Position numbers and translations under genes: made by a program
Source: Candidatus Colinaster equi
GTDB taxonomy: Bacteria > Bacillota > Clostridia > Lachnospirales > Lachnospiraceae
Assembly: GCA_018064425.1 (NCBI GenBank)
Contig: JAGHVF010000043.1
Location: forward strand, 1-52,879
Direction of reading: 5' to 3'
DNA: 52,879 bases
The notes under the pieces: model-generated
What the model was told of the DNA's origin: nothing
Databases searched by the model: none
Seen by the model: only the letters and a program-made list of their open reading frames with translations
Shown here: in pieces, positions 41-13,569 of the stretch
Layout: every line of letters starts with the position of its first letter
Numbering within the stretch: position 1 is the first letter of the stretch

Positions 41-50
41 TTTGAAGCGG

Positions 51-89
51 AACGGCATGCAGTTCTACTGGAATCAGCATGCCGTTTTT
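51..89 (+). terminator. Intrinsic terminator or attenuator before the surface-protein gene
   Basis: AACGGCATGC (51-60) and GCATGCCGTT (77-86) form a perfect 10-bp stem with a 16-nt loop, followed by a short T run (85-89). It ends 13 bp before the ribosome-binding site of the surface-protein gene. It is either the terminator of a + strand gene to the left of the window or an attenuator in the leader of the next gene. Confidence 0.7.
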
Positions 90-115
90 CCGGAATTTGC
101 ACAAGGGAGCAAATT

Positions 116-2866
116 ATGAGAAAGAAAGTATCAGCGCTTTTATCAACTGCTATTTTGTTCGTAACACTTATGCCGATGACTGTATCGGCAGGTGGAAGTC
201 CCGTAAGAATCGTTGAAACAGGGACATCATACGCGAACGTGCAGGTTGCTGTTGATAACGCGGAGAACGGACAGACAATTCAGTTATATACTACATGTAC
301 CGAGGATGTTACCATTCCGGATGGCAAGACAGTTGCGATCAATCTGAACGGAAACGTTCTCAAAGGTACAGGTGATAATAGTGTAATCACCATTGGAAGT
401 GGCGCAACGCTGACGCTGGATGACACCTCTACGGAAAAGACCGGAAAGGTTACCGGTGGTAGCGCGAATACAGGTGGCGGTGTGTATTGCGCAGGCACTT
501 TCATCATGAGTGGTGGAACGATTACCGGCAACGCAGCGACGACCTACGGAGGTGGCGTGTATGTGCTCGACGGAAGCATATTCACGATGGGCGGTGGCAC
601 GATCAGTGATAATTCAGCTAGTACCAGTGGCGGCGGCGTGTACGGTGCTTCCTCCAGCACCCTTAATGTAAAAGGTGGAACCATAAGCAAAAACAGTGCA
701 AAATCCGGCGGCGGTCTGTACACATACGACGGTTCAATCAATATCACCGGCGGCACGATTTGTAGCAACAATGCAACGAACGGTGGCGGTGTATATGACA
801 ATGGCACATTTACAATGTCCGGCGGCACGATAACCCAAAACAGTGCTGTATCAGGCGGTGGTGTGCTGATTAACGCCATAAGCACCTTTAAAATGCAAGA
901 CGGCATCATCAGCGAAAACAGCGCAAGCCAGAGCGGCGGCGGGGTGCTTGTAAACGATTTGGGCATTTTTGAAATGAACGGCGGTAGCATTGAGACGAAC
1001 CGTGTAACAGAAAATCAATCCGGTCGTCTTGGCGGCGGTGTCTATAACGACGGTGATTTTACGATGACTGCCGGCAAGATCTGCAACAATTCTTCCCGGG
1101 GAGCAGGTGGAATTTTCAACAAGTCCAAATCAATGATGAAACTACTTGCCGCAGAAGGCAAAACCATCGAAATCACTGGCAACGAAGCAGCGAGATGGGA
1201 AGGCGGCATTGCCAACTGGGGTGAGATGCACCTTTCCGGCAAGGTCATCATCAAGGATAATACATGCAAAGAAAGCGCTTATCCGATCAACCTGGCGACC
1301 AACAACGCAATCATTATTGACGGCGCGCTCGCGGGTTCGGAAATCTACATCACCCATGCGAACAGTTCCTCCGATAGTCAGGATATCGGCCTTCTGACGA
1401 GTGGTTATTCATCAAAGAGTGGCGGTACAGATCTGAATGATTTTTTCAACTATGATGGTCCTGTCAGCTTCGCAATGATACTCAACAACAGTAAAGAGTT
1501 GGAAGTTATGAATGTCTACGCCATTATCAATGGCTCGACGGCAGTCAACAAGGAGAAAAATCACGGCTATCTCACCCTTGATAAGGAATTAGCTGTTGCA
1601 GGCGGAACCGTTACCGTTACGGTCGAGCCGAACAGTGGCTATCGTCTCAAGAGCCTGACTGTCAAACAGCCAGACAAGGCGGAACCGGATGGCTCGTCCA
1701 TCACACCGATACAGAACCCGCAAGACAAGACGAAGTATACCTTTACGATGCCTGCCTATGCGGTCGCAGTTACGGCAGTATTTGAGGAAATCCCGCATAT
1801 CCATGATCTTGTAAAAGTAGACGGTCAAGCGGCAACCGAAACAACAGCTGGTTGGGAGAGTTATTACAAGTGTGCTTGTGGTGCTTTGTTTGAAGATGCA
1901 GACGAAACTACTCCGATCACGGATCTGGAAGCATGGAAAGCAGAAGGTGGCAACGGCTATATTCCTCCCATACCAAAATATACTGTTACCGTAACGAACG
2001 ACGGCAACGGTTCTGCCACTGCTGATACTACAAGCGGCATTGCTGGAACGGTTATCAAGCTGACTGCTACCCCTGCTGATGGTTATGAATTCGATTGTTG
2101 GAAAGTGGTTAGCGGTGGCGCGACTGTAACAAATAGTCAGTTTACCATCGGTACAGCTAACGTCGAGATCCGGGCTTGCTTCAAAGCAATCGTTCCACCA
2201 GAACCTATTCCACCGACACCGGTTCTTTCCGGAATCATCATCTCAGAGGCACCGGACAAATTAACTTATACCGAAGGTGAAACCTTTGACGCTACGGGAT
2301 TGATTGTTACAGCGATCTATAACGATGGTAGCCGAAAGTCCGTAAAAGACTATACATTCACACCTTCAGGAGTTCTTTCCGTAACGGATACCGCCATAGT
2401 AATCAGCTATGTCGAGAACGGAGAAACAAAGACCGCAAGTCTTGATATTAAAGTGAATCCCAAAGAACCTGTTGATTACAAAATAATCACTGGTGCAAAT
2501 CAGGCTATCTATACGACAGCGAATTCAGCAACCTTTGCCTCAAATGCTGATTACAGTAAGTTTCGCTTTGTAGAATTTGATGGTAAGAGATTACCTAGAA
2601 AGTACTATGTTGCCAAATCTGGATCAACAATCGTTACGCTTAACCGCGATTTCATCCGAACATTGAGTATTGGAAACCATACTTTGACGATTGTCTCTAC
2701 AGACGGAAAAGCTTCAACGACATTTAAAGTTGTCAGTCCTATACCTGCAACCGGTGAGCACATTCGCACAACGACACTCGTAGCAATACTCATGCTGGGT
2801 AGCGGAGGCTTGATCATACTTGATCAAGCAAACAAACGAAAGAAGAATCATACAGCCAACCAATAA
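116..2866 (+). CDS. Sortase-anchored beta-helix surface protein (adhesin-like)
   Basis: Predicted 916-residue secreted wall protein. The start at 116 is chosen because AAGGGAG (103-109) precedes it and a signal peptide follows directly (MRKK, hydrophobic stretch, cleavage near VSA at about residue 24); an upstream in-frame start at 35 would run through the terminator hairpin. Residues about 60-380 carry many irregular repeats with GGG-V-Y, T-M-S-GGTI and N-S-A cores, typical of right-handed parallel beta-helix proteins. Next come a short Cys-containing module (YKCACG) seen in many Firmicute surface proteins, an InlB-like B repeat near 650-710 and a bacterial Ig-like domain near 720-790. The C terminus has IPATG at about 876-880, a hydrophobic segment and a KRKK tail, a variant LPXTG sorting signal. 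Role in adhesion or glycan binding is inferred. Base composition is more G/C-rich than the following genes, suggesting separate acquisition. Confidence 0.85.
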   Translation: MRKKVSALLSTAILFVTLMPMTVSAGGSPVRIVETGTSYANVQVAVDNAENGQTIQLYTTCTEDVTIPDGKTVAINLNGNVLKGTGDNSVITIGSGATLTLDDTSTEKTGKVTGGSANTGGGVYCAGTFIMSGGTITGNAATTYGGGVYVLDGSIFTMGGGTISDNSASTSGGGVYGASSSTLNVKGGTISKNSAKSGGGLYTYDGSINITGGTICSNNATNGGGVYDNGTFTMSGGTITQNSAVSGGGVLINAISTFKMQDGIISENSASQSGGGVLVNDLGIFEMNGGSIETNRVTENQSGRLGGGVYNDGDFTMTAGKICNNSSRGAGGIFNKSKSMMKLLAAEGKTIEITGNEAARWEGGIANWGEMHLSGKVIIKDNTCKESAYPINLATNNAIIIDGALAGSEIYITHANSSSDSQDIGLLTSGYSSKSGGTDLNDFFNYDGPVSFAMILNNSKELEVMNVYAIINGSTAVNKEKNHGYLTLDKELAVAGGTVTVTVEPNSGYRLKSLTVKQPDKAEPDGSSITPIQNPQDKTKYTFTMPAYAVAVTAVFEEIPHIHDLVKVDGQAATETTAGWESYYKCACGALFEDADETTPITDLEAWKAEGGNGYIPPIPKYTVTVTNDGNGSATADTTSGIAGTVIKLTATPADGYEFDCWKVVSGGATVTNSQFTIGTANVEIRACFKAIVPPEPIPPTPVLSGIIISEAPDKLTYTEGETFDATGLIVTAIYNDGSRKSVKDYTFTPSGVLSVTDTAIVISYVENGETKTASLDIKVNPKEPVDYKIITGANQAIYTTANSATFASNADYSKFRFVEFDGKRLPRKYYVAKSGSTIVTLNRDFIRTLSIGNHTLTIVSTDGKASTTFKVVSPIPATGEHIRTTTLVAILMLGSGGLIILDQANKRKKNHTANQ

Positions 2867-2869
2867 CGC

Positions 2870-2905
2870 AAAGGGCATCTTCCGATAACGGTCGATGCCC
2901 TTTTT
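2870..2905 (+). terminator. Terminator of the surface-protein gene
   Basis: AAAGGGCATC (2870-2879) and GATGCCCTTT (2894-2903) pair over 10 bp around a 14-nt loop, ending in five T (2901-2905), four bases after the stop codon. Symmetric A and T runs mean it could also act on the minus strand. Confidence 0.9.
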
Positions 2906-3020
2906 ACTATTCTAAACCTCATTACACTGAGATATTACAAATCCCCCTGGCTATTCATCCATATTACGATTTCCTTCATTATCCCCAGCGGTAAACACTC
3001 TTTGGTTTCTGCATATTTAG

Positions 3021-3053
3021 CTCGATATCATTCCGATAATTCTGTCTATCGAG
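3021..3053. repeat. Inverted repeat CTCGATA/TATCGAG downstream of the XRE gene
   Basis: CTCGATA (3021-3027) and TATCGAG (3047-3053) are perfect 7-bp arms around 19 nt. They lie downstream of the minus-strand regulator gene that ends at 3094. There is no T run, so a terminator call is weak. Nothing else was recognised between 2906 and 3093. Confidence 0.35.
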
Positions 3054-3093
3054 AATCGGAAAATTTCAATTTTATAATCTTAAGTATGTAATA

Positions 3094-3765
3094 TTATTTC
3101 ATTATTCCACCATGAAAATAGCACTCATACACCTTCTCGTTCTCACAATATATCTCCTCGTAGCCTTGGAACCACGTGAAGTCTCCTGCCACATTACATC
3201 TATAGGTATATTGTCCTGATTGATAATACTCCGGTCCCCTATATGGCATATTTATATCAGCCATACGTAATGCTTCTTTTAAAAAATCACCACTGAATCT
3301 TTGACTCAATGCACGTCCTACATAGTTCATTGCATACTGAGATTTTCCATCATACCAAACTGCTTCCTCACCAGCAAACTGCTCTCCACCAACATAAGTG
3401 TCATGATATGTATATAAACCATTGCTATATGTAAAATCGTGTGAATCCAGCCTGGTCGATTCTGTTTCATTCATGTATGCTGCATAAGTATTTACATTTG
3501 CTTCCAAACGAAATTCGATGAGTTTTGCGATGTCTGGTTCTACATTTTCTACACAGGAAACAATGCATGCCTGGTCTTTCACCAAATAATCAACAGTAAC
3601 ATTAAACAGATTGCTAATTTGAATAAGATTATTGATATCTGGATACACTTGTCCAGATTCACATTTTGCAACGGCCTGCCTTGACACTTCTAATTCTTCT
3701 GCAAGTTCCTCCTGCGTTAATCCTTTGCTTTTACGAATCAATTGTAGTTTTTCTGAAAAAATCAT
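3094..3765 (-). CDS. XRE-family regulator with C-terminal DUF5680-like domain
   Basis: 223-residue predicted cytoplasmic DNA-binding protein. Residues 5-58 form a Cro/C1-type helix-turn-helix (LTQEELAEELEVSRQAVAKCESG, cited here only as the recognisable core around SRQAVAKCESG). Residues about 75-220 are rich in aromatic residues (VNTYAAYMNE, SHDFTY, GGEQFAGEEAVWYDG, AMNYVGR), the pattern I associate with the DUF5680 domain, probably a ligand or stress sensor; the ligand is unknown. A strong GGAGGTGA site lies just ahead of the start. It stands alone, downstream of the AAA ATPase gene on the same strand, separated by about 150 bp. Target genes cannot be deduced. Confidence 0.85.
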   Translation of the reverse strand: MIFSEKLQLIRKSKGLTQEELAEELEVSRQAVAKCESGQVYPDINNLIQISNLFNVTVDYLVKDQACIVSCVENVEPDIAKLIEFRLEANVNTYAAYMNETESTRLDSHDFTYSNGLYTYHDTYVGGEQFAGEEAVWYDGKSQYAMNYVGRALSQRFSGDFLKEALRMADINMPYRGPEYYQSGQYTYRCNVAGDFTWFQGYEEIYCENEKVYECYFHGGIMK

Positions 3766-3917
3766 TTCTTATCACCTCCACAATCATCGTACTTCATCCA
3801 TTCAAAATAAGACATAAACCATTAATTGCTTTTTTGCTACTTATGTTATACATGACAGATAAATAGGATTTTCGTACTCATACTTTTATTCTCACAATCT
3901 CACAAGTGATTATAATC

Positions 3918-5207
3918 TTATCTTTTAAGGCTATTAGCATCTAGCAGAAAATCGATCATATTGATTCGTAATATTCCTTCTTCATCCGCCCAGCTCTTTC
4001 CATAACTTTTGGAAATTACAATCTTTTTAAATGAATCTTTCACTGCTCTCAAAGACTTTAATTCTGCTTCCTGTTTTTCTGGATCATCCATACTTAAAGC
4101 TGACTGTATATAGTATTTTTCAGTCCCTTTTCTAGCTATGAAATCAACTTCTAATAATTTCTTTTCACGCTTTCCTTCCTCATTTTTTTCTACAACTTCA
4201 ACGACACCTACATCGACTGAATACCCTCTATATAGAAGTTCGTTATATAGTATGTTTTCTAAAATATGAGTTTCTTCTTGCTGCCTCAATCCTAAACGAA
4301 CATTTCTAAGACCAACGTCTGTACAATAATATTTCGATGGATAATCAAAGTATCTTTTACCCTTTACGTCGTATCTTTCAGCCTTTGAGAATAAAAAACT
4401 ATCCTGGAGATATTCCAAATATGCGCTAATAGTCTCAGAATCTACGCTTTTTCTTTTAGCAGATGACACTGTTCGTGCTATTTTACTTGCATTGGTAAGA
4501 GAACCTATCGAAGAACATATGCTACTCGTAAGCTTTCTCAAAACCTCCGGCAATAGAATTGTGTAGCGTTCCTCAATATCCTTGAAATATATCTCTTCAA
4601 ACAAAGATTCTAAATACTCATACTTGTCCTGATCTGAATTAAGTTGCAAAAGATACGGCATTCCTCCATACATTACATACTCATTGTATGCATCCACTTT
4701 ATCCAATCCAGATGCAACATAAAATTCTGAGAACGATAATGGATAAACGTGAATAACATCGCCTCTTCCTCTAAACTCCGTCATGACATCTTTTGATAGG
4801 AGTTTTGAATTACTACCAGTCACATATACATCTATGTTTTTGAGTTTCAAAAGACCATTTAGTACACTATATAACCTTATCGGTTTATCTTTGTCACGGA
4901 TTTCTTCTTTGCTAATAGCGAACTGGATTTCATCTAGAAATACATAGTATTTCTTCTCCTTATCTGCACACTTTTCCCTCACATATTTTGATATTTCTGA
5001 AGGATCCCTATATATCTCGTTTATGTCATCATCTAATGCTATGGCAATAATCTCAGACTCTGATACTCCCGAATTCAAAAGATATTCTTTATAAATTTCA
5101 AAGAGAAGTGTACTTTTCCCACTTCTTCTTATACCTGTGATAATCTTTATCCTTCCATTCCACTTCTTATCAATAAGCTTTTCTAGATATATCGGCCTTG
5201 CTATCAT
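3918..5207 (-). CDS. AAA_14/DUF4143-type ATPase
   Basis: 429 residues. The N-terminal P-loop domain has Walker A GIRRSGKS (25-32) and Walker B VFLDE (89-93); the C-terminal half fits the DUF4143 region (ending with a nuclease-like fold in related proteins, e.g. the DFIARKGTEKYYIQ stretch). These ATPases are widespread, often in accessory regions and in many paralogous copies, and their function is unknown. The protein has no signal peptide or membrane segment, so it is cytoplasmic. It is a single-gene unit with its own promoter (5255-5283) flanked by paired 20-bp repeats, which suggests tight regulation. Its neighbours, an XRE regulator and a decayed group II intron, fit an accessory locus. 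Confidence 0.88.
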   Translation of the reverse strand: MIARPIYLEKLIDKKWNGRIKIITGIRRSGKSTLLFEIYKEYLLNSGVSESEIIAIALDDDINEIYRDPSEISKYVREKCADKEKKYYVFLDEIQFAISKEEIRDKDKPIRLYSVLNGLLKLKNIDVYVTGSNSKLLSKDVMTEFRGRGDVIHVYPLSFSEFYVASGLDKVDAYNEYVMYGGMPYLLQLNSDQDKYEYLESLFEEIYFKDIEERYTILLPEVLRKLTSSICSSIGSLTNASKIARTVSSAKRKSVDSETISAYLEYLQDSFLFSKAERYDVKGKRYFDYPSKYYCTDVGLRNVRLGLRQQEETHILENILYNELLYRGYSVDVGVVEVVEKNEEGKREKKLLEVDFIARKGTEKYYIQSALSMDDPEKQEAELKSLRAVKDSFKKIVISKSYGKSWADEEGILRINMIDFLLDANSLKR

Positions 5208-5232
5208 ATCATCCCTCCGAAACTTGAGTGAG

Positions 5233-5252
5233 TTTACACCTTAATTCCGATT
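5233..5252 (-). promoter_or_regulatory. Operator-like repeat copy A, over the transcription start of the AAA gene
   Basis: On the minus strand it reads AATCGGAATTAAGGTGTAAA. It matches copy B (5289-5308) at 17 of 20 positions in the same orientation, 56 bp apart. It overlaps the expected transcription start of the promoter at 5255-5283, where a bound protein would block initiation. Confidence 0.6.
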
Positions 5253-5254
5253 TT

Positions 5255-5283
5255 ATTATATCGTTGCATCTATCGGAATTCAA
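5255..5283 (-). promoter_or_regulatory. Sigma-A type promoter of the AAA ATPase gene
   Basis: Minus strand: -35 TTGAAT (5283-5278), 17-bp spacer, -10 TATAAT (5260-5255), 48 bp upstream of the start codon. An inverted pair AATTCCGAT (5243-5251) and ATCGGAATT (5272-5280) also brackets the -10, and a palindrome TTCACAG-G-CTGTGAA lies further upstream at 5334-5348. Confidence 0.75.
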
Positions 5284-5288
5284 TCGCA

Positions 5289-5308
5289 TTTGCACCCTAC
5301 TTCCGATT
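5289..5308 (-). promoter_or_regulatory. Operator-like repeat copy B, upstream of the -35 of the AAA gene
   Basis: Minus strand AATCGGAAGTAGGGTGCAAA, the second copy of the 20-bp repeat. It ends 6 bp upstream of the -35. Two direct copies on either side of one promoter suggest cooperative binding or looping by a regulator, possibly the neighbouring XRE protein (inference). Confidence 0.6.
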
Positions 5309-5376
5309 GCAAGTTCCATCGTAATCGAATTCTTTCACAGGCTGTGAATATTTTCGATTAAGCCAATCATTGTACT

Positions 5377-5443
5377 ATCGAGCAGGTGGGAATTTAATCT
5401 CTCTCGCACACCACCGTACGTGCCGTTCGGCCTACGGCGGTTC
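5377..5443 (-). mobile_element. Group II intron 3' remnant (domains V and VI)
   Basis: The minus strand at 5443-5410 gives a 34-nt domain V. ACCGCCGTA and TACGGTGGT pair over 9 bp, a GCC/GGC distal stem carries a GAAC loop, and there is a bulge before the TACGG arm. This is the form I know from clostridial group II introns whose 3' end reads GGTGGTGTGAGAGG...CTCGAT. A degenerate domain VI follows and ends in CTGCTCGAT at 5385-5377, the usual intron 3' end. Upstream (5444-5524) there is no recognisable domain I-IV sequence and no maturase, so it is a 5'-truncated relic, not a functional intron. Confidence 0.8.
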
Positions 5444-5524
5444 AATAAAATTTCAAACTAGTCAAAAACACTATCGTTAGATTGATATTATTACTACTGC
5501 TTTTGTAGCACTAAAAATCAGAAT
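5444..5524. other. A/T-rich spacer between the intron remnant and the GNAT gene
   Basis: No gene, strong hairpin or promoter was recognised here. The whole 5208-5524 gap is explained by the AAA promoter region, the intron remnant and this spacer. Confidence 0.5.
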
Positions 5525-5917
5525 TTACTCACTCTCATACGTCTCAAGCTGACCACTGAGCATCGTATAAAAGCCAAACCTTTCATAAAATGATTTTAAG
5601 CTTTCATCAAATATAACCGAAATCATGTAGATATGGCTTTCTTTAAGATATTCAATCATCTTATTCATCAATTCAGAGCCTATACCCTTTCCCTGATATC
5701 CCGGCTTTACCATAAGATCCTGAATATATGCATCCGTAACCCCATTAGAAATACAATCTACATATCCTATCAGTTCATTATCTTCAAATGCAGCAATATG
5801 ATAGTAAGATGTCATCTTTGGATTAGAAAGTTCTTTTTCCATTCTATTCCAACCTACAGATTCTCTAAGCGAAGATAGCTGCTCTGCAGATACTTGCTCA
5901 TTTATTTCGAATGTCAT
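5525..5917 (-). CDS. GNAT-family N-acetyltransferase
   Basis: 130 residues, a single GNAT fold. The acetyl-CoA site is visible as VKPGYQGKGIGSELM (Q/G-x-x-G-x-G motif A) at about residues 70-84, and the C-terminal FYERFGFY element near 110-118 is typical of the family. The substrate cannot be predicted. An excellent site (AAGGAGGTC) precedes the start. It follows the carbamoyltransferase gene, but a likely terminator (5949-5969) separates the two, so co-transcription is doubtful. Confidence 0.9.
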   Translation of the reverse strand: MTFEINEQVSAEQLSSLRESVGWNRMEKELSNPKMTSYYHIAAFEDNELIGYVDCISNGVTDAYIQDLMVKPGYQGKGIGSELMNKMIEYLKESHIYMISVIFDESLKSFYERFGFYTMLSGQLETYESE

Positions 5918-5948
5918 TTATACGACCTCCTTGGGAAAATAAAATAAG

Positions 5949-5969
5949 AATCTAGCAATTCACTAGATT
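5949..5969 (-). terminator. Probable terminator after the carbamoyltransferase gene
   Basis: AATCTAG (5949-5955) and CTAGATT (5963-5969) pair over 7 bp with a 7-nt loop. On the minus strand a T-rich tract (CTTATTTTATTTT) follows, 8 bp downstream of the stop codon. Confidence 0.6.
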
Positions 5970-5976
5970 AACAATT

Positions 5977-6801
5977 TTATTGTGTTAAGCAATATACAAC
6001 AATTGCCTGTTGAACTTCTAATAAAGCCTTTTTGAATTCATATCCAACAAAGTATTCTGAATCAATAACATCCGCTGAAACTTCTTCTCCACGATAAAAT
6101 GGCGGACAAGGATTTAATAGTGCTCCTTTATTGGCTTTATCCATTATTGCTTTAGTTACTTGACACTTATTAAATGCTGCAAGTGCATTAGAAGGCAACG
6201 AATCTGTACAAACAATATCTTTTCCTACTACTGCTTCATCAATATCTTCATATGTATTTATGCCCTCTATCTCGTAGCCTTTTCCACAACACTGTTCCAG
6301 TCTAAATCCAAAGACATCTGATGCCTCTTTCCAAGCATTACCAATATTTCCATTCATTCCACAGAACAGAAAACTATCAGTCTTGAAATCTGGTCGAATT
6401 TTTGATAAAGAATATAAATCAGTCAATATTTCACAAGGGTGATTAATATCTGTCATCGCATTAATTACCGGAACTTTTGCATACTTAGAAATTGTTTCTA
6501 AGACTGCTATATTTTTATGTCTAACAATAACTAAATCAGCCCAATTATTAAGATATCCTATTACATCTTGTAATTCTTCTTTTTTATCTAATGTTTCTGT
6601 CGGAAACAATATCGTTTGTCCACCTAACAAATGAATTCCTTTTTCAAAAGACACTCTTGTTCTAATGCTATTATTAGGAAAAAACATTACAACTGTTTTT
6701 CCTTCAAGAATACCTTTGTATTTATCTATTTCATCGGCTATAGAAAATATTTCTCGTATTTCATCAACCGAATAATCAGTAAGCCTAATCAAGTCTTTCA
6801 T
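5977..6801 (-). CDS. Ornithine/aspartate carbamoyltransferase-family protein, atypical active site
   Basis: 274 residues from the ATG at 6801, which has GGAG 9 nt upstream; a 7-residue longer start exists. The carbamoyl-phosphate motif is intact as SIRTR (45-49), and the N-terminal half closely follows ornithine carbamoyltransferases (VSFEKGIHLLGG). The HPxQ motif is HPCE (121-124). The ornithine loop D-x3-SMG is replaced by DSLPS (200-204), and the HCLP loop by NPCPP (230-234) followed by FYRGEEVSADVIDS. It is also shorter than the usual 310-335 residues. It probably still carbamoylates an amino group, but on a different acceptor. No other arginine or pyrimidine gene is adjacent; it lies 113 bp downstream of a sensor kinase gene. 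Confidence 0.8.
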   Translation of the reverse strand: MKDLIRLTDYSVDEIREIFSIADEIDKYKGILEGKTVVMFFPNNSIRTRVSFEKGIHLLGGQTILFPTETLDKKEELQDVIGYLNNWADLVIVRHKNIAVLETISKYAKVPVINAMTDINHPCEILTDLYSLSKIRPDFKTDSFLFCGMNGNIGNAWKEASDVFGFRLEQCCGKGYEIEGINTYEDIDEAVVGKDIVCTDSLPSNALAAFNKCQVTKAIMDKANKGALLNPCPPFYRGEEVSADVIDSEYFVGYEFKKALLEVQQAIVVYCLTQ

Positions 6802-6914
6802 ATACAAAATCTCCATTAACAATTTTTCCTTGATATATTGCTGTTTTCATAACATATATTCCTTTGCGCCTTAAATAAGATTTACGATAGCCCGTATTCT
6901 CAAAATTTTCTCCA

Positions 6915-8183
6915 TCAAGCAAAAAACACCTTAAAAACAACGAATCCATCTTTGCATTCCACAGTAATTTTTGCATCATTTGCATCTGCTATAGATTTTG
7001 CAATAGCAAGTCCCAATCCATAATGCCCTGAGAATTCATGCGAACTGTCTGCTCTATAAAATCTCTCAAATAGTTTATTTCTCTCATTTATAGGTATTTC
7101 TTCGCCAGGGTTTGATACGCTAAAAACTATTTTACCCTTGGTTTCATATAACTTCACAAAGATTCTATTCAAATCTCCCTTTACGGATGTTGTATGCGAA
7201 ATAGCATTATCTACCAAGATCGTCACTAGCTGGCTTATCCCCTTTTCGTCAACATTTGCAGTGATTTCATCTTCTATTTCGGATTCTATTAAAATATTCT
7301 TTTCAAAAGCAGCTGACTCCATTGAGACAACTGTACCATTTACAAGGTAAGATATATCTGTAGAAGTCTTTTGCACTGTCCTGTTTTCATTTCTGGCAAG
7401 TTCAAGTAATTCTGTGACCAATTCCCTCATACGTTCATTTTCATACGAAATATTATCAAGCCACTTATTTTCTCCTATCTCTCTCTTAAGAATATCAATA
7501 TTGGCAGCCATGGCAGCTATAGGTGTCTTTAATTCATGGCTTGCATCAGCAGTAAATTGCTTTTGCTTAAGGTAACTTTCCTCCATAGGTGCAACAATAC
7601 GACCTGCAATTCTTATAGAAATGAATGTAATAATGGCAAGCGCAATAGCTCCAAACAATAAAGTGTACAGTAACACACGCATAAAGCTATCTGTTAAAAC
7701 TATATTGTCCATAAAACATACTAGTATATCACCATCTTTTTCACCGACAATATACAAAAATTCACTTGTTCTACCTCTGGTTTTTGAAGCAAACTTCCTA
7801 GCATATTCAATAAGCTCTTCGTTTGAAAACAGAGCATCTGCACCATTCTCAAGCACCTCAGCCCTTCCGTCAGCAGCTATCTTAACAGTATAAAAAGTAT
7901 TTAATTTTAAATGTCTCTGAATCTTCTTTTCCCCAGTCATATTGGGCCCAAATGGCACTGGTCTGCCCTCTTTATGACCTGGATCTTTCGGCCCTTTTGT
8001 CTGATTTCTATTAGGATTAGACTCATCAGCCAACATCACCAGATGTGTTTCGAGCACTTCATAATTCTGACCAATAGTAGAATAATAGCTTGATACAAAC
8101 ACTAGTGTTAAAGTTCCAGTTAAAACCGTAGTAAGGATTGCAAGAATTGTAATTACAATTTTTCGTTTTGCCTTTTTAAACAT
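6915..8183 (-). CDS. Membrane sensor histidine kinase
   Basis: 422 residues. Two membrane segments (about 9-31 and 168-191) enclose an extracytoplasmic sensor of about 135 residues that is rich in Pro, Gly, Lys and Asn at 55-85. The phosphoacceptor is H216 in FTADASHELKTP, followed by the N box (LVDNAISHT) and G boxes (YGLGLAIAKS). No clear HAMP domain is seen. Its start overlaps the end of the response regulator gene by 8 bp, so the pair is translationally coupled. It is the last gene of the lipoprotein-VTC-DUF4956-regulator-kinase operon and presumably senses an envelope or ion signal tied to those products (inference). Confidence 0.95.
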   Translation of the reverse strand: MFKKAKRKIVITILAILTTVLTGTLTLVFVSSYYSTIGQNYEVLETHLVMLADESNPNRNQTKGPKDPGHKEGRPVPFGPNMTGEKKIQRHLKLNTFYTVKIAADGRAEVLENGADALFSNEELIEYARKFASKTRGRTSEFLYIVGEKDGDILVCFMDNIVLTDSFMRVLLYTLLFGAIALAIITFISIRIAGRIVAPMEESYLKQKQFTADASHELKTPIAAMAANIDILKREIGENKWLDNISYENERMRELVTELLELARNENRTVQKTSTDISYLVNGTVVSMESAAFEKNILIESEIEDEITANVDEKGISQLVTILVDNAISHTTSVKGDLNRIFVKLYETKGKIVFSVSNPGEEIPINERNKLFERFYRADSSHEFSGHYGLGLAIAKSIADANDAKITVECKDGFVVFKVFFA

Positions 8184-8859
8184 TCTCGTACCTCATCTCA
8201 TATCCAACACCACGTACAGCTTTAATTTCTGTCTTTGACTCTAAAAATTTAAGTTTTTTTCTTACAAAAGTCATGTACACCTCGACATTATTATATTCCG
8301 CCTCGCTTTCATAACCCCATATCTTAAGTGCAAGCTGCTCTCTGGTCATTATATGCCCTTTATTTGCAATTAGGATTTCCATAGTTCTGAATTCCTTATC
8401 CGAAAGACGCACCTCTGCACCTGTTTCTTTATTCCGAAGATTCATTGTACCAGTCTCAAGAATAATATCGCCAAAAAGTAGTTTCCCTTCATCAACGTTG
8501 TACTGTCTCCTAGAAAGGGCTCTCAGCCTAGCAAGAAGCTCCTTGGTCACAAAAGGCTTTGTCAAGTAGTCATCTGCACCACAGTCAAGCCCATTAACCT
8601 TATCGTCTACATCACTTTTGGCTGTCAGCATTAAAATTGGTGTTTTTACGCCTTTTTGTCTGGCTTCCCTGGCAATTTCGAATCCATTTTTATGTGGAAG
8701 CATGACATCAAGTATGACAATATCATATTCGTCACTAGCCAAGGCATCAGCTCCATCCTGACCATCAACGAACCAGTCCACCTCATAATTCTCCTGCCTT
8801 AATAACTCTTGCAATGCCTGTCCCATTCTTTTTTCATCTTCTACAAGAAGAAGTTTCAT
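8176..8859 (-). CDS. OmpR/PhoB-family response regulator
   Basis: 227 residues: receiver domain 1-115 with acidic pocket E7/D8, phosphoacceptor D51 (VILDVMLP) and the conserved Lys in LTKPF near 100; winged-helix DNA-binding domain from about 130 to 225 (LSDKEFRTMEILIANKG, VYMTFVRKKL, VRGVGYEMRY pieces). It is partner to the overlapping kinase. It lies 50 bp downstream of the DUF4956 gene in the same operon. The 11-bp-spaced direct repeats at 11455-11471, in the promoter of the first gene of the operon, fit the binding pattern of this regulator class, suggesting autoregulation. Confidence 0.95.
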   Translation of the reverse strand: MKLLLVEDEKRMGQALQELLRQENYEVDWFVDGQDGADALASDEYDIVILDVMLPHKNGFEIAREARQKGVKTPILMLTAKSDVDDKVNGLDCGADDYLTKPFVTKELLARLRALSRRQYNVDEGKLLFGDIILETGTMNLRNKETGAEVRLSDKEFRTMEILIANKGHIMTREQLALKIWGYESEAEYNNVEVYMTFVRKKLKFLESKTEIKAVRGVGYEMRYENV

Positions 8860-11597: not shown

Positions 11598-11633
11598 GCA
11601 AAAATGCCGTAAAACGGGCGTTTTACGGCATTT
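11598..11633 (-). terminator. Former tRNA-Trp terminator, now beyond the island
   Basis: AAATGCCGTAAAAC (11602-11615) and GTTTTACGGCATTT (11620-11633) form a perfect 14-bp stem with a 4-nt loop, then five T on the minus strand. It lies 18 bp beyond the displaced tRNA-Trp 3' end, and by position would be the original terminator of that tRNA before integration. The terminator now next to the tRNA (13456-13489) has a related sequence. Confidence 0.85.
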
Positions 11634-11651: not shown

Positions 11652-11698
11652 TAGCAGGGGATGAGAGAATCGAACTCCCACCAAAGGTTTTGGAGACC
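11652..11698 (-). repeat. attL-type repeat: displaced 3' fragment of tRNA-Trp
   Basis: 47 bp identical to 13496-13542. It contains the TPsiC arm, acceptor 3' strand and part of the anticodon arm, but lacks the D arm and 5' half, so it is not a functional tRNA. The sequence diverges immediately after GGAGACC. Confidence 0.9.
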
Positions 11699-11759
11699 TC
11701 AAATAACATCCCTTGCAGCCCGCTATTTATGGGCATCTTGAGCCAATCGTTACACTTTT

Positions 11760-11784
11760 TCACCACTTCTGTCACCACTTCTCA
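11760..11784. repeat. Left arm-type repeat of the island
   Basis: Contains two tandem units of TCACCACTTCT(G). The 25-nt block is identical to 13352-13376 at the right end, in the same orientation, and lies 62 bp inside the left tRNA repeat. The pattern fits integrase arm-binding sites. Apart from the tRNA fragment and this repeat, nothing was recognised between 11634 and 11836. Confidence 0.65.
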
Positions 11785-11836
11785 AAAATGGCAAACACCT
11801 TAATAAACATTATGATAATATGTCTGCTATTACAAT

Positions 11837-12364
11837 TTACTTATTAGCAATATACTCCATATCTTTATCCTTATCAATCCTCTTAAGATATCTCCATACT
11901 CGTTCCACATCAGATTTCGATAAGCGATTACAATCACAGTTTTTAATAAATGCATTGCAATTACTAACATCCAATTCTAGATCCTTGGAGACTCTATATG
12001 TAGAAATCCTGCTATTATTTAATAGAATATGGATTTGTTTATACATTAATCTTTTCGTATCATCTTCCCTAGACTTCTTAGTTGATGCATATATATACGA
12101 TTTATATAACTTTCGATAATTTCCAGGCAATTCACTATATGAATCTCCGTATTCCTTTATCATTGAGCATTCAGACATCAAATCTTTATTCTTACTCATA
12201 ATACTGTATGAAGCATTTGTCATTACTGCATATAAGGCTAACGGCTCAAGTATTCTTGGATTGTCTGGAAGTACTTTTAAAGTCTTACTTACACTACAGG
12301 TATTTAATCCTGACAATTCGCATATATATTTTTCTAGAAATCCTTCATATGTTAATCTTCTCAT
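11837..12364 (-). CDS. HTH protein paired with a nucleotidyltransferase (putative antitoxin/regulator)
   Basis: 175 residues with no family I can name confidently. The N-terminal 110 residues are mainly helical; residues about 119-160 (SRISTYRVSKDLELDVS, then NAFIKNCDCNRLS) have the shape of a small helix-turn-helix that I have seen in regulators of the type YR-x-x-K-D-L. Its start overlaps the stop of the upstream nucleotidyltransferase gene by 4 bp (ATGA), so the two are translationally coupled. That arrangement, plus a long inverted repeat over the shared promoter, suggests it is the DNA-binding antitoxin or repressor of a two-gene module. It is A/T-rich with many rare-type codons, like a horizontally acquired gene. 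Confidence 0.7.
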   Translation of the reverse strand: MRRLTYEGFLEKYICELSGLNTCSVSKTLKVLPDNPRILEPLALYAVMTNASYSIMSKNKDLMSECSMIKEYGDSYSELPGNYRKLYKSYIYASTKKSREDDTKRLMYKQIHILLNNSRISTYRVSKDLELDVSNCNAFIKNCDCNRLSKSDVERVWRYLKRIDKDKDMEYIANK

Positions 12365-12873
12365 AGTCTATGTTTATTTTTATATTCTTTGTAATTGTAG
12401 TCAAAATTCTCCATACCAGATATTTTACTGTTTCTGAGCAAATTAGCCAAAGATTCCAATCGTTCCCAATCAATATCTTTTATTACACTTTCTGAATCTA
12501 TATCAACAATATCTTGTTTACCCCTGGTTGTGCACAGTTTCGCTATAACCAAATCTTCCAAAGATAGTGTAAAAAATTTAACCTTTTCAGTTGGTATATC
12601 TATAAGACATGCTCTTTCTTCATATCCTGATGGAAAAGAATCAAAGTAGGCTACTACATCCATATTCATATCATGCTTACTAAAAAGAGATGATATTTCT
12701 TTAGGATATCTTTCCAAAATATCAATATCATGAGTGGATCTTATGGTATATCCCATAATAGCTAATGCCGAGCCACCCACTATATAGCACTTGAATGTTG
12801 TATCATCCACAAATGTTAATTGAGCATCTAAATCTAAATCTATTAGTCTTTGAATCAGTTCATCTTTTTTCAT
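12361..12873 (-). CDS. Nucleotidyltransferase-fold protein (DUF6036/AbiEii-like), putative toxin
   Basis: 170 residues. The polymerase-beta-type nucleotidyltransferase signature is visible: GGS (33-35) in YIVGGSALAIMGY, then T-x-DID (D49, D51) in RSTHDIDIL, and a third carboxylate likely in the strand after VVAYFDS. The later segment SLEDLVIAKLCTTRGKQDIVDI matches the helix after the catalytic core in DUF6036 and AbiEii-type proteins, where enzymes of this fold modify tRNA or other targets and act in toxin-antitoxin or phage-defence roles. It is first gene of the pair, 14 bp downstream of a 14-bp-arm inverted repeat that overlaps its promoter. Assignment as toxin is inference. Confidence 0.8.
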   Translation of the reverse strand: MKKDELIQRLIDLDLDAQLTFVDDTTFKCYIVGGSALAIMGYTIRSTHDIDILERYPKEISSLFSKHDMNMDVVAYFDSFPSGYEERACLIDIPTEKVKFFTLSLEDLVIAKLCTTRGKQDIVDIDSESVIKDIDWERLESLANLLRNSKISGMENFDYNYKEYKNKHRL

Positions 12874-12887
12874 TTCTCATTTTCGCC

Positions 12888-12929
12888 TTTCATTACCAAT
12901 AGTGTATGGTATTGGTAATGAAAAGTCAA
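12888..12929 (-). promoter_or_regulatory. Promoter and operator of the nucleotidyltransferase/HTH pair
   Basis: Minus strand: -35 TTGACT (12929-12924), 17-bp spacer, -10 TACACT (12906-12901). A perfect inverted repeat TTTCATTACCAATA (12888-12901) / TATTGGTAATGAAA (12910-12923), spacer 8 bp, covers the -35/-10 spacer and the start region. It is a textbook layout for autorepression. Confidence 0.75.
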
Positions 12930-12952
12930 TATTTGCATAATGTCAAGTATAC

Positions 12953-12982
12953 AAAAGAACTCCACACATTGTGTAGAGTTCT
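12953..12982 (-). terminator. Terminator after the excisionase-like gene
   Basis: AGAACTC (12956-12962) and GAGTTCT (12976-12982) pair, with an additional ACAC/GTGT inner stem. On the minus strand four T follow. It lies 20 bp downstream of the stop codon and separates the two island operons. Confidence 0.7.
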
Positions 12983-13001
12983 AAATCATTACTTATGTCA
13001 T

Positions 13002-13184
13002 TTATATTTCAAACTCTTTTCCAGCATACCTGTCGAGCCAAGCCTTGAATTTTTCAGGCGTAACAAAGTACGTATGACCAAGTTTGGTTGCTGGAAATCC
13101 GCTTGACTGCATCAATTCGTACGCTCTGTTTCTACCAATCTTGAGTATTCTCATTATATCCTTAACATTATATACTTCATCCAT
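13002..13184 (-). CDS. Excisionase-family (HTH_17) DNA-binding protein
   Basis: 60 residues, a MerR-like winged helix-turn-helix of the excisionase type: YNVKDIMRILKIGRNRAYELM recognition region (residues 5-25), then a beta hairpin ending YFVTPEKFKAWLDRY. Such proteins are normally encoded beside the integrase of tRNA-targeting elements and direct excision. Here no integrase follows, and a terminator lies directly downstream. It begins one base after the stop of the tiny ORF at 13186-13287, with GGAGG upstream. Confidence 0.85.
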   Translation of the reverse strand: MDEVYNVKDIMRILKIGRNRAYELMQSSGFPATKLGHTYFVTPEKFKAWLDRYAGKEFEI

Positions 13185-13185
13185 T

Positions 13186-13287
13186 TTATTTTTCCTCCAA
13201 TCTATTTAAGTAGCTCTCAGTGTCCTTTTTACTCATTTTGAACACGAAACCTCTGCCTTTTTTACCATTTATTTTGACAGTACTCAT
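13186..13287 (-). CDS. Small basic protein of the island, 33 residues
   Basis: ATG at 13287 with GGAGAG just upstream, stop TAA one base before the excisionase-like start. The product begins MSTVKINGKKGRGFVFKM and ends KDTESYLNRLEEK; about a quarter of it is Lys or Arg. An open frame extends 15 codons further upstream without a better start. No family is recognised. Its tight coupling to the excisionase gene suggests a role in element maintenance or expression. Confidence 0.5.
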   Translation of the reverse strand: MSTVKINGKKGRGFVFKMSKKDTESYLNRLEEK

Positions 13288-13351
13288 TTCTCTCCATTCC
13301 GGATACTGCCTAACTACATCGTTTGGGTCATTTCAACAAAATATGGTTTTG

Positions 13352-13392
13352 TCACCACTTCTGTCACCACTTCTCATGATTTGTCACCACTT
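13352..13392. repeat. Right arm-type repeats of the island
   Basis: Three units of GTCACCACTT at 13351, 13363 and 13383, the first two forming the 25-nt block identical to 11760-11784. Together with the left copy they flank the cargo in direct orientation, as expected for integrase arm sites. Confidence 0.65.
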
Positions 13393-13455
13393 TTTTTAAC
13401 ATTTATTAAGTTTTATAGGTAGTAAACGGGAATACATTTAGATGTGTTAAAGTAC

Positions 13456-13489
13456 GAAAAAGCCGTAAAATCAACGATTTTACGGCTTT
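13456..13489 (-). terminator. Terminator downstream of tRNA-Trp
   Basis: AAAGCCGTAAAATC (13459-13472) and GATTTTACGGCTTT (13476-13489) give a 14-bp stem with a 3-nt loop, followed by five T on the minus strand, 10 bp past the tRNA 3' end. It lies inside the island, so the element supplies the terminator for the host tRNA. Confidence 0.9.
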
Positions 13490-13495
13490 CTCATT

Positions 13496-13542
13496 TAGCA
13501 GGGGATGAGAGAATCGAACTCCCACCAAAGGTTTTGGAGACC
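13496..13542 (-). repeat. attR-type repeat inside tRNA-Trp
   Basis: 47 bp identical to 11652-11698, spanning from 3 bp past the tRNA 3' end to the anticodon region. Confidence 0.9.
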
Positions 13543-13569
13543 CCTATCATACCATTTGACCAATCCCCT
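13499..13569 (-). tRNA. tRNA-Trp (CCA)
   Basis: 71 nt on the minus strand. Acceptor AGGGGAT pairs with ATCCCCT before discriminator G. The D arm contains AATGGTA, the anticodon arm is GGGGT-CTCCAAA-ACCTT with anticodon CCA, and the T arm contains GTTCGATTC. CCA is not encoded. Promoter at 13599-13627, terminator at 13456-13489. The 3' half is the right-hand copy of the island's duplicated attachment sequence. Confidence 0.96.

What the first reader, a model, noticed from the sequence alone, without database searches (positions are those of the whole stretch)
11652..13542. Integrase-less 1.9-kb mini-island in tRNA-Trp carrying only a two-gene defence-like module
The 47-bp duplication of the tRNA-Trp 3' end, an excisionase-like gene and repeats at both ends show site-specific integration, yet no integrase is present and the sole cargo is a nucleotidyltransferase/HTH pair. 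It could be a satellite mobilised by a related element's integrase in trans, or a deletion relic kept for its cargo.
Basis: partly seen in the sequence, partly recalled or inferred. Interest (0 to 1): 0.75.

Follow-up and report, generated by a model that had tools for sequence, protein, structure and literature searches.

The report
Integrase-less mini-island in tRNA-Trp
A 1.8-kb stretch of mobile DNA sits in a tRNA gene of a gut bacterium; it seems to have lost the enzyme it needs to move by itself but keeps the landing sites, an excision helper gene and a two-gene module that looks like a toxin-antitoxin pair, which makes it a neat but ordinary case of a decayed mobile island.

Summary
A 47-bp exact copy of the tRNA-Trp 3' half, arm-type repeats at both ends, a 60-aa excisionase-like gene and a DUF6036 nucleotidyltransferase/HTH pair lie at the stated coordinates; no integrase lies on the window contig.

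The segment is variable: 2 of 20 genus genomes, the window's own and Candidatus Colinaster scatohippi, carry its HTH gene, both in tRNA-Trp. The two islands share ends and cargo but differ inside, and neither has an integrase. The operon is far less diverged than core genes (4-fold sites 19/72 against 195/290), so it crossed between species. The left repeat is unchanged where the operon's divergence predicts 7.6 changes, which suggests a young insertion; the right end's own low divergence predicts only 0.9, so this is not firm.

A 48-codon open stretch of no known family lies upstream of the excisionase gene, where homology to the relative stops. I read this as a deletion scar: a CIME-like decayed island with an autoregulated, toxin-antitoxin-like operon. 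Movement helped by a foreign integrase is possible but unproven. No integrase-bearing parent or circular form was found; an empty site within the species could not be sought.

The parts
11652..11698 (-). left 47-bp copy of the tRNA-Trp 3' half (outer attachment repeat)
   Evidence: exact repeat
13496..13542 (-). right 47-bp copy, inside the intact tRNA gene apart from its first two bases
13498..13569 (-). intact tRNA-Trp(CCA), the integration target
   Evidence: ARAGORN
11654..11724 (-). chimeric tRNA-Trp-like call: left repeat plus island sequence; not taken as a second gene
   Evidence: ARAGORN; the 5' part is island sequence
11758..11780 (+). left pair of arm-type sites (TTTCACCACTT, TGTCACCACTT)
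13350..13392 (+). right arm-type sites, three copies of TGTCACCACTT
11837..12364 (-). 175-aa HTH protein, second gene of the operon; probable antitoxin/autorepressor
   Evidence: relatives
12361..12873 (-). 170-aa DUF6036 nucleotidyltransferase, first gene of the operon; probable toxin
   Evidence: PF19502 E 4.1e-38; VGGSAL and DIDILE motifs
12888..12923 (-). perfect 14-bp inverted repeat with an 8-bp loop, likely operator; arms identical in G001
12901..12929 (-). promoter-like TTGACT-17-TACACT overlapping the inverted repeat
   Evidence: consensus scan: 23 such sites found in the stretch against 11.1 expected, so weak by itself
12956..12982 (-). terminator-like hairpin between xis and the operon
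13002..13184 (-). 60-aa excisionase-like HTH_17 gene (xis)
   Evidence: PF12728; phrog_66 excisionase E 5e-6; relatives beside integrases
13189..13332 (-). 48-codon open stretch ending just before xis; possible C-terminal stump of a deleted gene
   Evidence: no confident family
13337..13495 (+). right end of the island, 96% identical to G001 over 158 aligned nt
13456..13492 (.). inverted repeat inside the island next to the tRNA, similar to the stem at 11602-11633
11602..11633 (.). terminator-like hairpin outside the left repeat, probably the original tRNA terminator

Best explanation
This is a decayed integrative element in tRNA-Trp that works like a CIME (cis-mobilizable element). Shown: it has both attachment repeats, arm-type sites at both ends, an excisionase-like gene and an operon of a DUF6036 nucleotidyltransferase and an HTH protein, and no integrase; the operon is much less diverged from that of another Candidatus Colinaster species than core genes are. 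Inferred: the ancestor carried a tyrosine integrase next to the right arm sites; a deletion from just inside those sites into the gene before xis removed it, together with any transfer genes. The nucleotidyltransferase is probably a toxin held in check by the HTH protein, which also represses the operon through the inverted repeat over its promoter, so loss of the island would be penalised. The island now moves only if another tRNA-Trp element supplies an integrase in trans or inserts next to it, or else is swapped by homologous recombination.
For: Repeats, tRNA and arm sites. No integrase on the window contig; the six Phage_integrase matches elsewhere in the bin are two complete frames of 295 and 385 aa, one interrupted by a stop, and three shorter frames of 61, 99 and 195 aa. 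48-codon stretch that begins about where the homology with G001 stops (13336). G001 carries the same left end, HTH gene, nucleotidyltransferase, xis and right end in the same tRNA, with about 3.7 kb of other genes in between and no integrase there; its nucleotidyltransferase matches only residues 57-169 and its xis has a stop. Operon 4-fold sites differ at 19 of 72 against 195 of 290 in radA, a 146-aa neighbour and clpC. xis relatives have an integrase directly downstream in 5 of 11 loci, all the non-own matches. Other integrase loss at this tRNA: G003 has only an N-terminal integrase piece in its island; G014 and G008 share the end that lies beside G006's integrase, without an integrase there.
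Against: On the operon's clock the left repeat should show about 7.6 changes had it stayed in place since the two islands split, and shows none (P 5e-4); that would leave little time for a deletion after insertion and fits movement without an own integrase. xis differs from G001 mostly by silent changes (28 of 132 nt, 4 of 44 residues), so it was under selection for much of that time. The parent with an integrase was not found, so the ancestor is inferred. The 48-codon stretch has no family and could be a chance open frame. No ICE or IME gene is present to prove that kind of ancestor. Toxicity is untested. xis 4-fold sites (9/15) differ more than the operon's (P 0.016), so one simple history does not fit the whole island.
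Confidence: 0.6

Rival explanations
1. A living satellite: a minimal element that keeps only ends and xis and is excised and inserted in trans by integrases of other tRNA-Trp elements of the genus, and so spreads between species without an integrase of its own.
For: Unchanged left repeat, which suggests a young insertion on the operon's clock; xis kept; two integrase-free relatives in two species; an intact integrase sits beside tRNA-Trp in G006.
Against: Calibrated on the right end's low divergence the left repeat says nothing (0.9 expected, P 0.40). Arm sites of the G006 end (GTGGAACAT type) and the G003 end (GTCACAGGTTT type) differ from those here (by eye). The arm pair, with up to 3 mismatches, occurs only in G000 and G001 of 20 genus genomes. 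No exact match of the circular junction or of a right-end 26-mer in viral contigs. The G001 xis is broken.
Confidence: 0.2
2. An inert relic that no longer moves at all, carried along by descent and occasionally swapped between species by ordinary homologous recombination through the shared tRNA and flanking ends.
For: No integrase; mosaic identity along the island: right end 0.96, HTH 0.87, left end 0.81; the low divergence of the right end could come from such an exchange.
Against: Homologous exchange needs shared flanks: identity just beyond the tRNA is only 0.76 (63 aligned nt), and of the 250 bp tested left of the left repeat only the terminator-like stem is shared. The left repeat is unchanged.
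Confidence: 0.15
3. Assembly or binning artefact: an integrase-bearing interior was collapsed or lost between the short repeats.
For: Both genomes are incomplete assemblies in many contigs, 84% and 74% complete; G001 is titled a MAG.
Against: Two separate assemblies show integrase-free islands with different interiors on contigs of 52.9 and 39.9 kb; in the window the operon and xis frames are intact.
Confidence: 0.05

Closest known systems
CIME (cis-mobilizable element), e.g. in Streptococcus salivarius and S. agalactiae (PMC7563491, PMC5704250; passages seen)
   Same: att repeats kept, integrase and transfer genes absent, within the 1.2-13 kb class with cargo, 3' end of a conserved gene or tRNA
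   Different: xis kept; stands alone rather than in tandem; ICE or IME ancestry not shown
tyrosine-integrase elements with an xis-int pair (PF00589; here G003:C47 and G008:C34)
   Same: xis family
   Different: no integrase; the gene downstream of xis is the nucleotidyltransferase; tRNA-Trp not found in those two loci
MenAT and AbiE nucleotidyltransferase toxin-antitoxin systems (PMC11375011, passages seen)
   Same: small nucleotidyltransferase with a DxD motif next to a DNA-binding partner
   Different: family is DUF6036, not DUF1814; enzyme gene comes first; no activity data
Composite island CGI48 of Shewanella putrefaciens in tRNA-Trp, stabilised by HipAB (PMC8978831, passages seen)
   Same: island in tRNA-Trp with a toxin-antitoxin pair
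   Different: 48 kb, with its own integrase and excisionase; integrated at the 5' end of the tRNA gene; different toxin

Membership tests
CIME | attL and attR repeats kept at both ends | tested here: met
   47/47 identical repeats
CIME | no integrase and no relaxase, coupling protein or VirB4 gene | tested here: met
   I find only three genes and one 48-codon stretch between the repeats; none matches such families
CIME | no recombination gene left at all (strict wording in PMC7563491) | tested here: not met
   xis at 13002-13184 is an intact frame, so it is called CIME-like, not filed as a CIME
CIME | derives by deletion from an ICE or IME | tested here: inconclusive
   possible stump of 48 codons; no parent found
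CIME | can be mobilised by accretion with another element | not testable with these tools
   needs mating or excision assays
AbiEii/MenT (DUF1814) toxins | match to the DUF1814/AbiEii family | tested here: not met
   at E up to 1 Pfam returned only DUF6036 (E 4.1e-38) and a weak Aminoglyc_resit match (E 0.095); PADLOC none
AbiEii/MenT (DUF1814) toxins | nucleotidyltransferase motifs (GG[SG] and DxD) | tested here: met
   VGG(S/G)AL and DIDILE shared with G203; weak NCBIfam match to CCA nucleotidyltransferase (E 7.5e-4, far below its cut-off)
toxin-antitoxin operon | two overlapping genes with an autoregulatory operator | tested here: inconclusive
   4-nt overlap at 12361-12364 and an inverted repeat over the promoter-like site, arms unchanged in G001; no such repeat was found before the pair in G203; repression itself untested
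toxin-antitoxin operon | one gene toxic, the other protective | not testable with these tools
   only indirect: G001 lost the start of the enzyme and kept the HTH gene; HTH without the enzyme in G359 and MT835727 (near-identical loci) and in L119
phage satellite | phage or capsid-hijacking genes, or mobilisation in trans | tested here: inconclusive
   no confident phage family besides xis; no circle junction or right-end 26-mer in viral contigs

The most novel reading that the evidence does not exclude
A minimal helper-dependent mobile element, nothing but two tRNA-Trp ends, an excisionase and an autoregulated nucleotidyltransferase toxin-antitoxin pair, that spreads between Lachnospiraceae species by borrowing integrases in trans while choosing the direction of recombination with its own xis.
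Probability: 0.2. Interest if true: 0.65.

Novelty: new member of a known kind. Interest (0 to 1): 0.36.

Why it matters
Decayed att-flanked islands are described as very common, but the one survey I saw could detect them only next to a full element (PMC7563491, passages). This one stands alone, is under 2 kb and has a sister copy in another species, so one can ask directly whether an island with ends and xis but no integrase still moves. The DUF6036-HTH pair is an easily tested toxin-antitoxin candidate; the word DUF6036 is in no paper of the library searched.

Tried and rejected
Missed integrase: rejected; no PF00589 match on the window contig. Core segment: rejected; 2 of 20 genus genomes carry the HTH gene, the window's own counted. 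Parent element: not found by arm pattern (1 of 299 family genomes, the window's own; 2 of 20 genus genomes, G000 and G001); by right-end DNA (12 of 397 family genomes matched, one being the window's own; of the 11 others I read five loci, L133, L134, L135, L137 and L138, where I saw only short matches, no integrase among the frames listed and no tRNA-Trp; six were not read); or by viral contigs. The alignment search of viral contigs gave one HTH relative, L119. One viral contig (L106) has the arm pair twice, but between phage-like genes with no tRNA, and I saw no integrase in its listed frames.

The 48-codon stretch: no confident family; in 299 family genomes one other hit (G075, E 0.008) lies among recR- and ybaB-like genes (names recalled) and was dropped as chance.

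Age of the insertion: besides the operon's clock (7.6 changes expected, P 5e-4) the same call gives 5.1 expected on the left end's divergence (P 0.006) and 0.9 on the right end's (P 0.40, no evidence). A guess that the G001 xis is a mosaic of two alleles: tested, not significant (P 0.21). Right end more similar than the operon: constraint and later exchange cannot be told apart.

xis has a weak match to the MADS defence protein MAD1 (NCBIfam E 2e-4, 21.5 bits against a cut-off of 80; PADLOC E 0.033); I took it as shared HTH_17 likeness. Structures: HTH model of low confidence (pLDDT 66.5, best at the C-terminal HTH), PDB matches only weak (best E 1.1: Aca1; then XRE-type regulators and HipB). 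Nucleotidyltransferase model too poor to search (pLDDT 48.6). Sequence searches of PDB gave nothing useful (best E 0.74 and 0.13). Papers: DUF6036 gave 0 papers, 'Colinaster' 1 (listing only); searches on integrase-less or non-autonomous islands gave 0, 1 and 1, of which I saw passages of PMC11389934 and PMC5704250; three more searches gave listings.

Full report
What is there. The window is contig C1 of a genome of 2.33 Mb in 79 contigs, 83.7% complete. Between 11652 and 13542 lie two exact 47-bp copies of the 3' half of tRNA-Trp; the intact gene is at 13498-13569 on the - strand. Just inside each end are direct TGTCACCACTT sites, two on the left (one with a mismatch) and three on the right. 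This is the usual anatomy of a tyrosine-integrase insertion (general knowledge). The GC content of 32.3% is lower than in each of 158 overlapping windows of equal length from the rest of the contig.

Genes. All point left. A 60-aa HTH_17 protein at 13002-13184 matches excisionase families. A terminator-like hairpin follows it. Then a promoter-like TTGACT-17-TACACT is overlapped by a perfect 14-bp inverted repeat, followed by a 170-aa DUF6036 nucleotidyltransferase and, overlapping it by 4 nt, a 175-aa HTH protein. The promoter scan alone is weak evidence (23 sites found, 11.1 expected). PADLOC returns nothing for the last two proteins. Upstream of xis, a 48-codon open stretch runs up to the inner edge of the right end.

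Integrase. The genome has six Phage_integrase matches, none on this contig: two complete frames of 295 and 385 aa, one interrupted by a stop codon, and three shorter frames of 61, 99 and 195 aa. I read the two complete ones as chromosomal XerC/XerD-type enzymes (label recalled), because strong matches in frames of about 290-400 aa are listed for most genus genomes. With 16% of the genome missing, an intact helper cannot be excluded.

The sister island. Of 20 genus genomes, only G000 and G001 have the HTH gene. In G001 (L037) it lies in tRNA-Trp, between copies of the 47-bp repeat that are 45/47 alike. The two islands share the left end, HTH gene, nucleotidyltransferase, xis and right end. In G001, however, the nucleotidyltransferase matches only residues 57-169, xis is broken near its start, and genes for a chemotaxis-type receptor and a LuxR-type regulator (labels from the sequence and memory) lie between xis and the right end. 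The only PF00589 match in G001 is on another contig. The homology at the right end stops at window position 13336, next to the 48-codon stretch. I read this as a deletion endpoint in the window's island.

It moved between species. At 4-fold degenerate sites the operon differs at 19 of 72 positions, the core genes radA, a 146-aa neighbour and clpC at 195 of 290 (Fisher P 5e-10). Identity is 0.96 at the right end, 0.87 in the HTH gene, 0.81 at the left end, and 0.76 just outside the tRNA. Of the 250 bp tested left of the left repeat, only the terminator-like stem is shared with other genus genomes, and the two proteins of the left flank are in none of the 16 tRNA-Trp loci fetched. The different levels suggest a mosaic history, and xis (9 of 15 4-fold sites) does not fit the operon's level (P 0.016).

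The insertion may be young. If the left repeat had stayed in place since the two operons separated, about 7.6 changes would be expected in 47 bases; the window shows none (P 5e-4). On the left end's divergence 5.1 are expected (P 0.006), on the right end's only 0.9 (P 0.40), so the answer hangs on which clock applies. G001's left repeat has two changes against the common genus form, one of them shared with its own tRNA. Gene conversion from the tRNA, or constraint on the repeat, could also keep it unchanged.

The tRNA is a hot spot with decay. I fetched the tRNA-Trp surroundings of 16 other genus genomes. A second copy of the 3' half (up to 7 mismatches) is present in G001 and G003 and absent from the 14 others within the sequence held; eight of those have at least 5 kb on the relevant side, and one (L054) only 13 bp, so absence is informative for about half. 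G004 has only short pieces of the site, and G012 and G019 gave no match. G003 has an 8.4-kb island with a 68% identical xis at the left and an integrase N-terminal piece of 156 aa at the right. G006 has an intact 426-aa integrase beside the tRNA; G014 (206 bp, 99.5%) and G008 (162 bp, 94.4%, tRNA included) share that end with no integrase beside it. G008 does have an integrase-like match in a 240-aa frame about 8 kb away on that contig, and G017 a 445-aa integrase about 4 kb from its tRNA-Trp with other genes in between. Integrase loss at this tRNA thus looks recurrent. Relatives of xis have an integrase directly downstream in 5 of 11 loci.

Function of the cargo. In 397 family genomes the HTH protein occurs in 3, the window's own counted. 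Of 12 DUF6036 places found in 10 of 200 family genomes, only the window's and one of G203 have this HTH partner. The pair recurs in G203 (56% and 34% identical) and, cut by the record's end, in MT839758; the HTH protein occurs without the enzyme in G359 and MT835727, which are nearly the same locus, and in L119. Loss of the enzyme with retention of the HTH gene, also seen in G001, is what is expected if the enzyme is the toxic partner. The window has VGGSAL and DIDILE motifs, G203 VGGGAL and DIDILE. Nucleotidyltransferase toxins that modify tRNA have a DxD motif (PMC11375011, passages), but the family differs (DUF6036, not DUF1814). The inverted repeat is kept in G001 but not seen in G203. Toxicity, target and repression are inferred, not shown.

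Known kinds. CIMEs are decayed elements with att sites but without recombination and transfer genes, 1.2-13 kb when they carry cargo, moved by accretion with another element (PMC7563491 and PMC5704250, passages). This island works like one. I do not file it as one, since xis is intact and ICE or IME ancestry is not shown. Verdict: a real, well-delimited, decayed mobile island; new member of a known kind. The open point that would raise its interest is movement without its own integrase, which read data could settle.

Noticed in passing
L040 (G003:C46) 46-8565: Another tRNA-Trp island of 8.4 kb with xis at one end, an integrase N-terminal piece at the other, and GTCACAGGTTT-type arm repeats (by eye).
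   Followed up: partly
L041, L042, L051 (G014, G008, G006), next to tRNA-Trp: The end beside G006's intact integrase is nearly identical in G014 (99.5% over 206 bp, tRNA included) and G008 (94.4% over 162 bp), which lack the integrase there: traces of exchange and integrase loss.
   Followed up: partly
L106 4855-5064 (IMG/VR contig): The same 23-bp double arm site occurs twice in inverted orientation around an AT-rich gap between phage-like genes, with no tRNA in the contig.
   Followed up: partly
window 11654-11724: ARAGORN calls a second tRNA-Trp that is a chimera of the repeat and island sequence; automatic annotation would count it as a gene.
   Followed up: partly
L119 2885-4558 (IMG/VR contig): A relative of the 175-aa HTH protein sits just downstream of a 344-aa tyrosine recombinase, without the nucleotidyltransferase.
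   Followed up: no
L111 and L115 (G171, G119): More distant DUF6036 proteins are paired with a different upstream XRE-type HTH gene (label by eye), in the opposite gene order.
   Followed up: no
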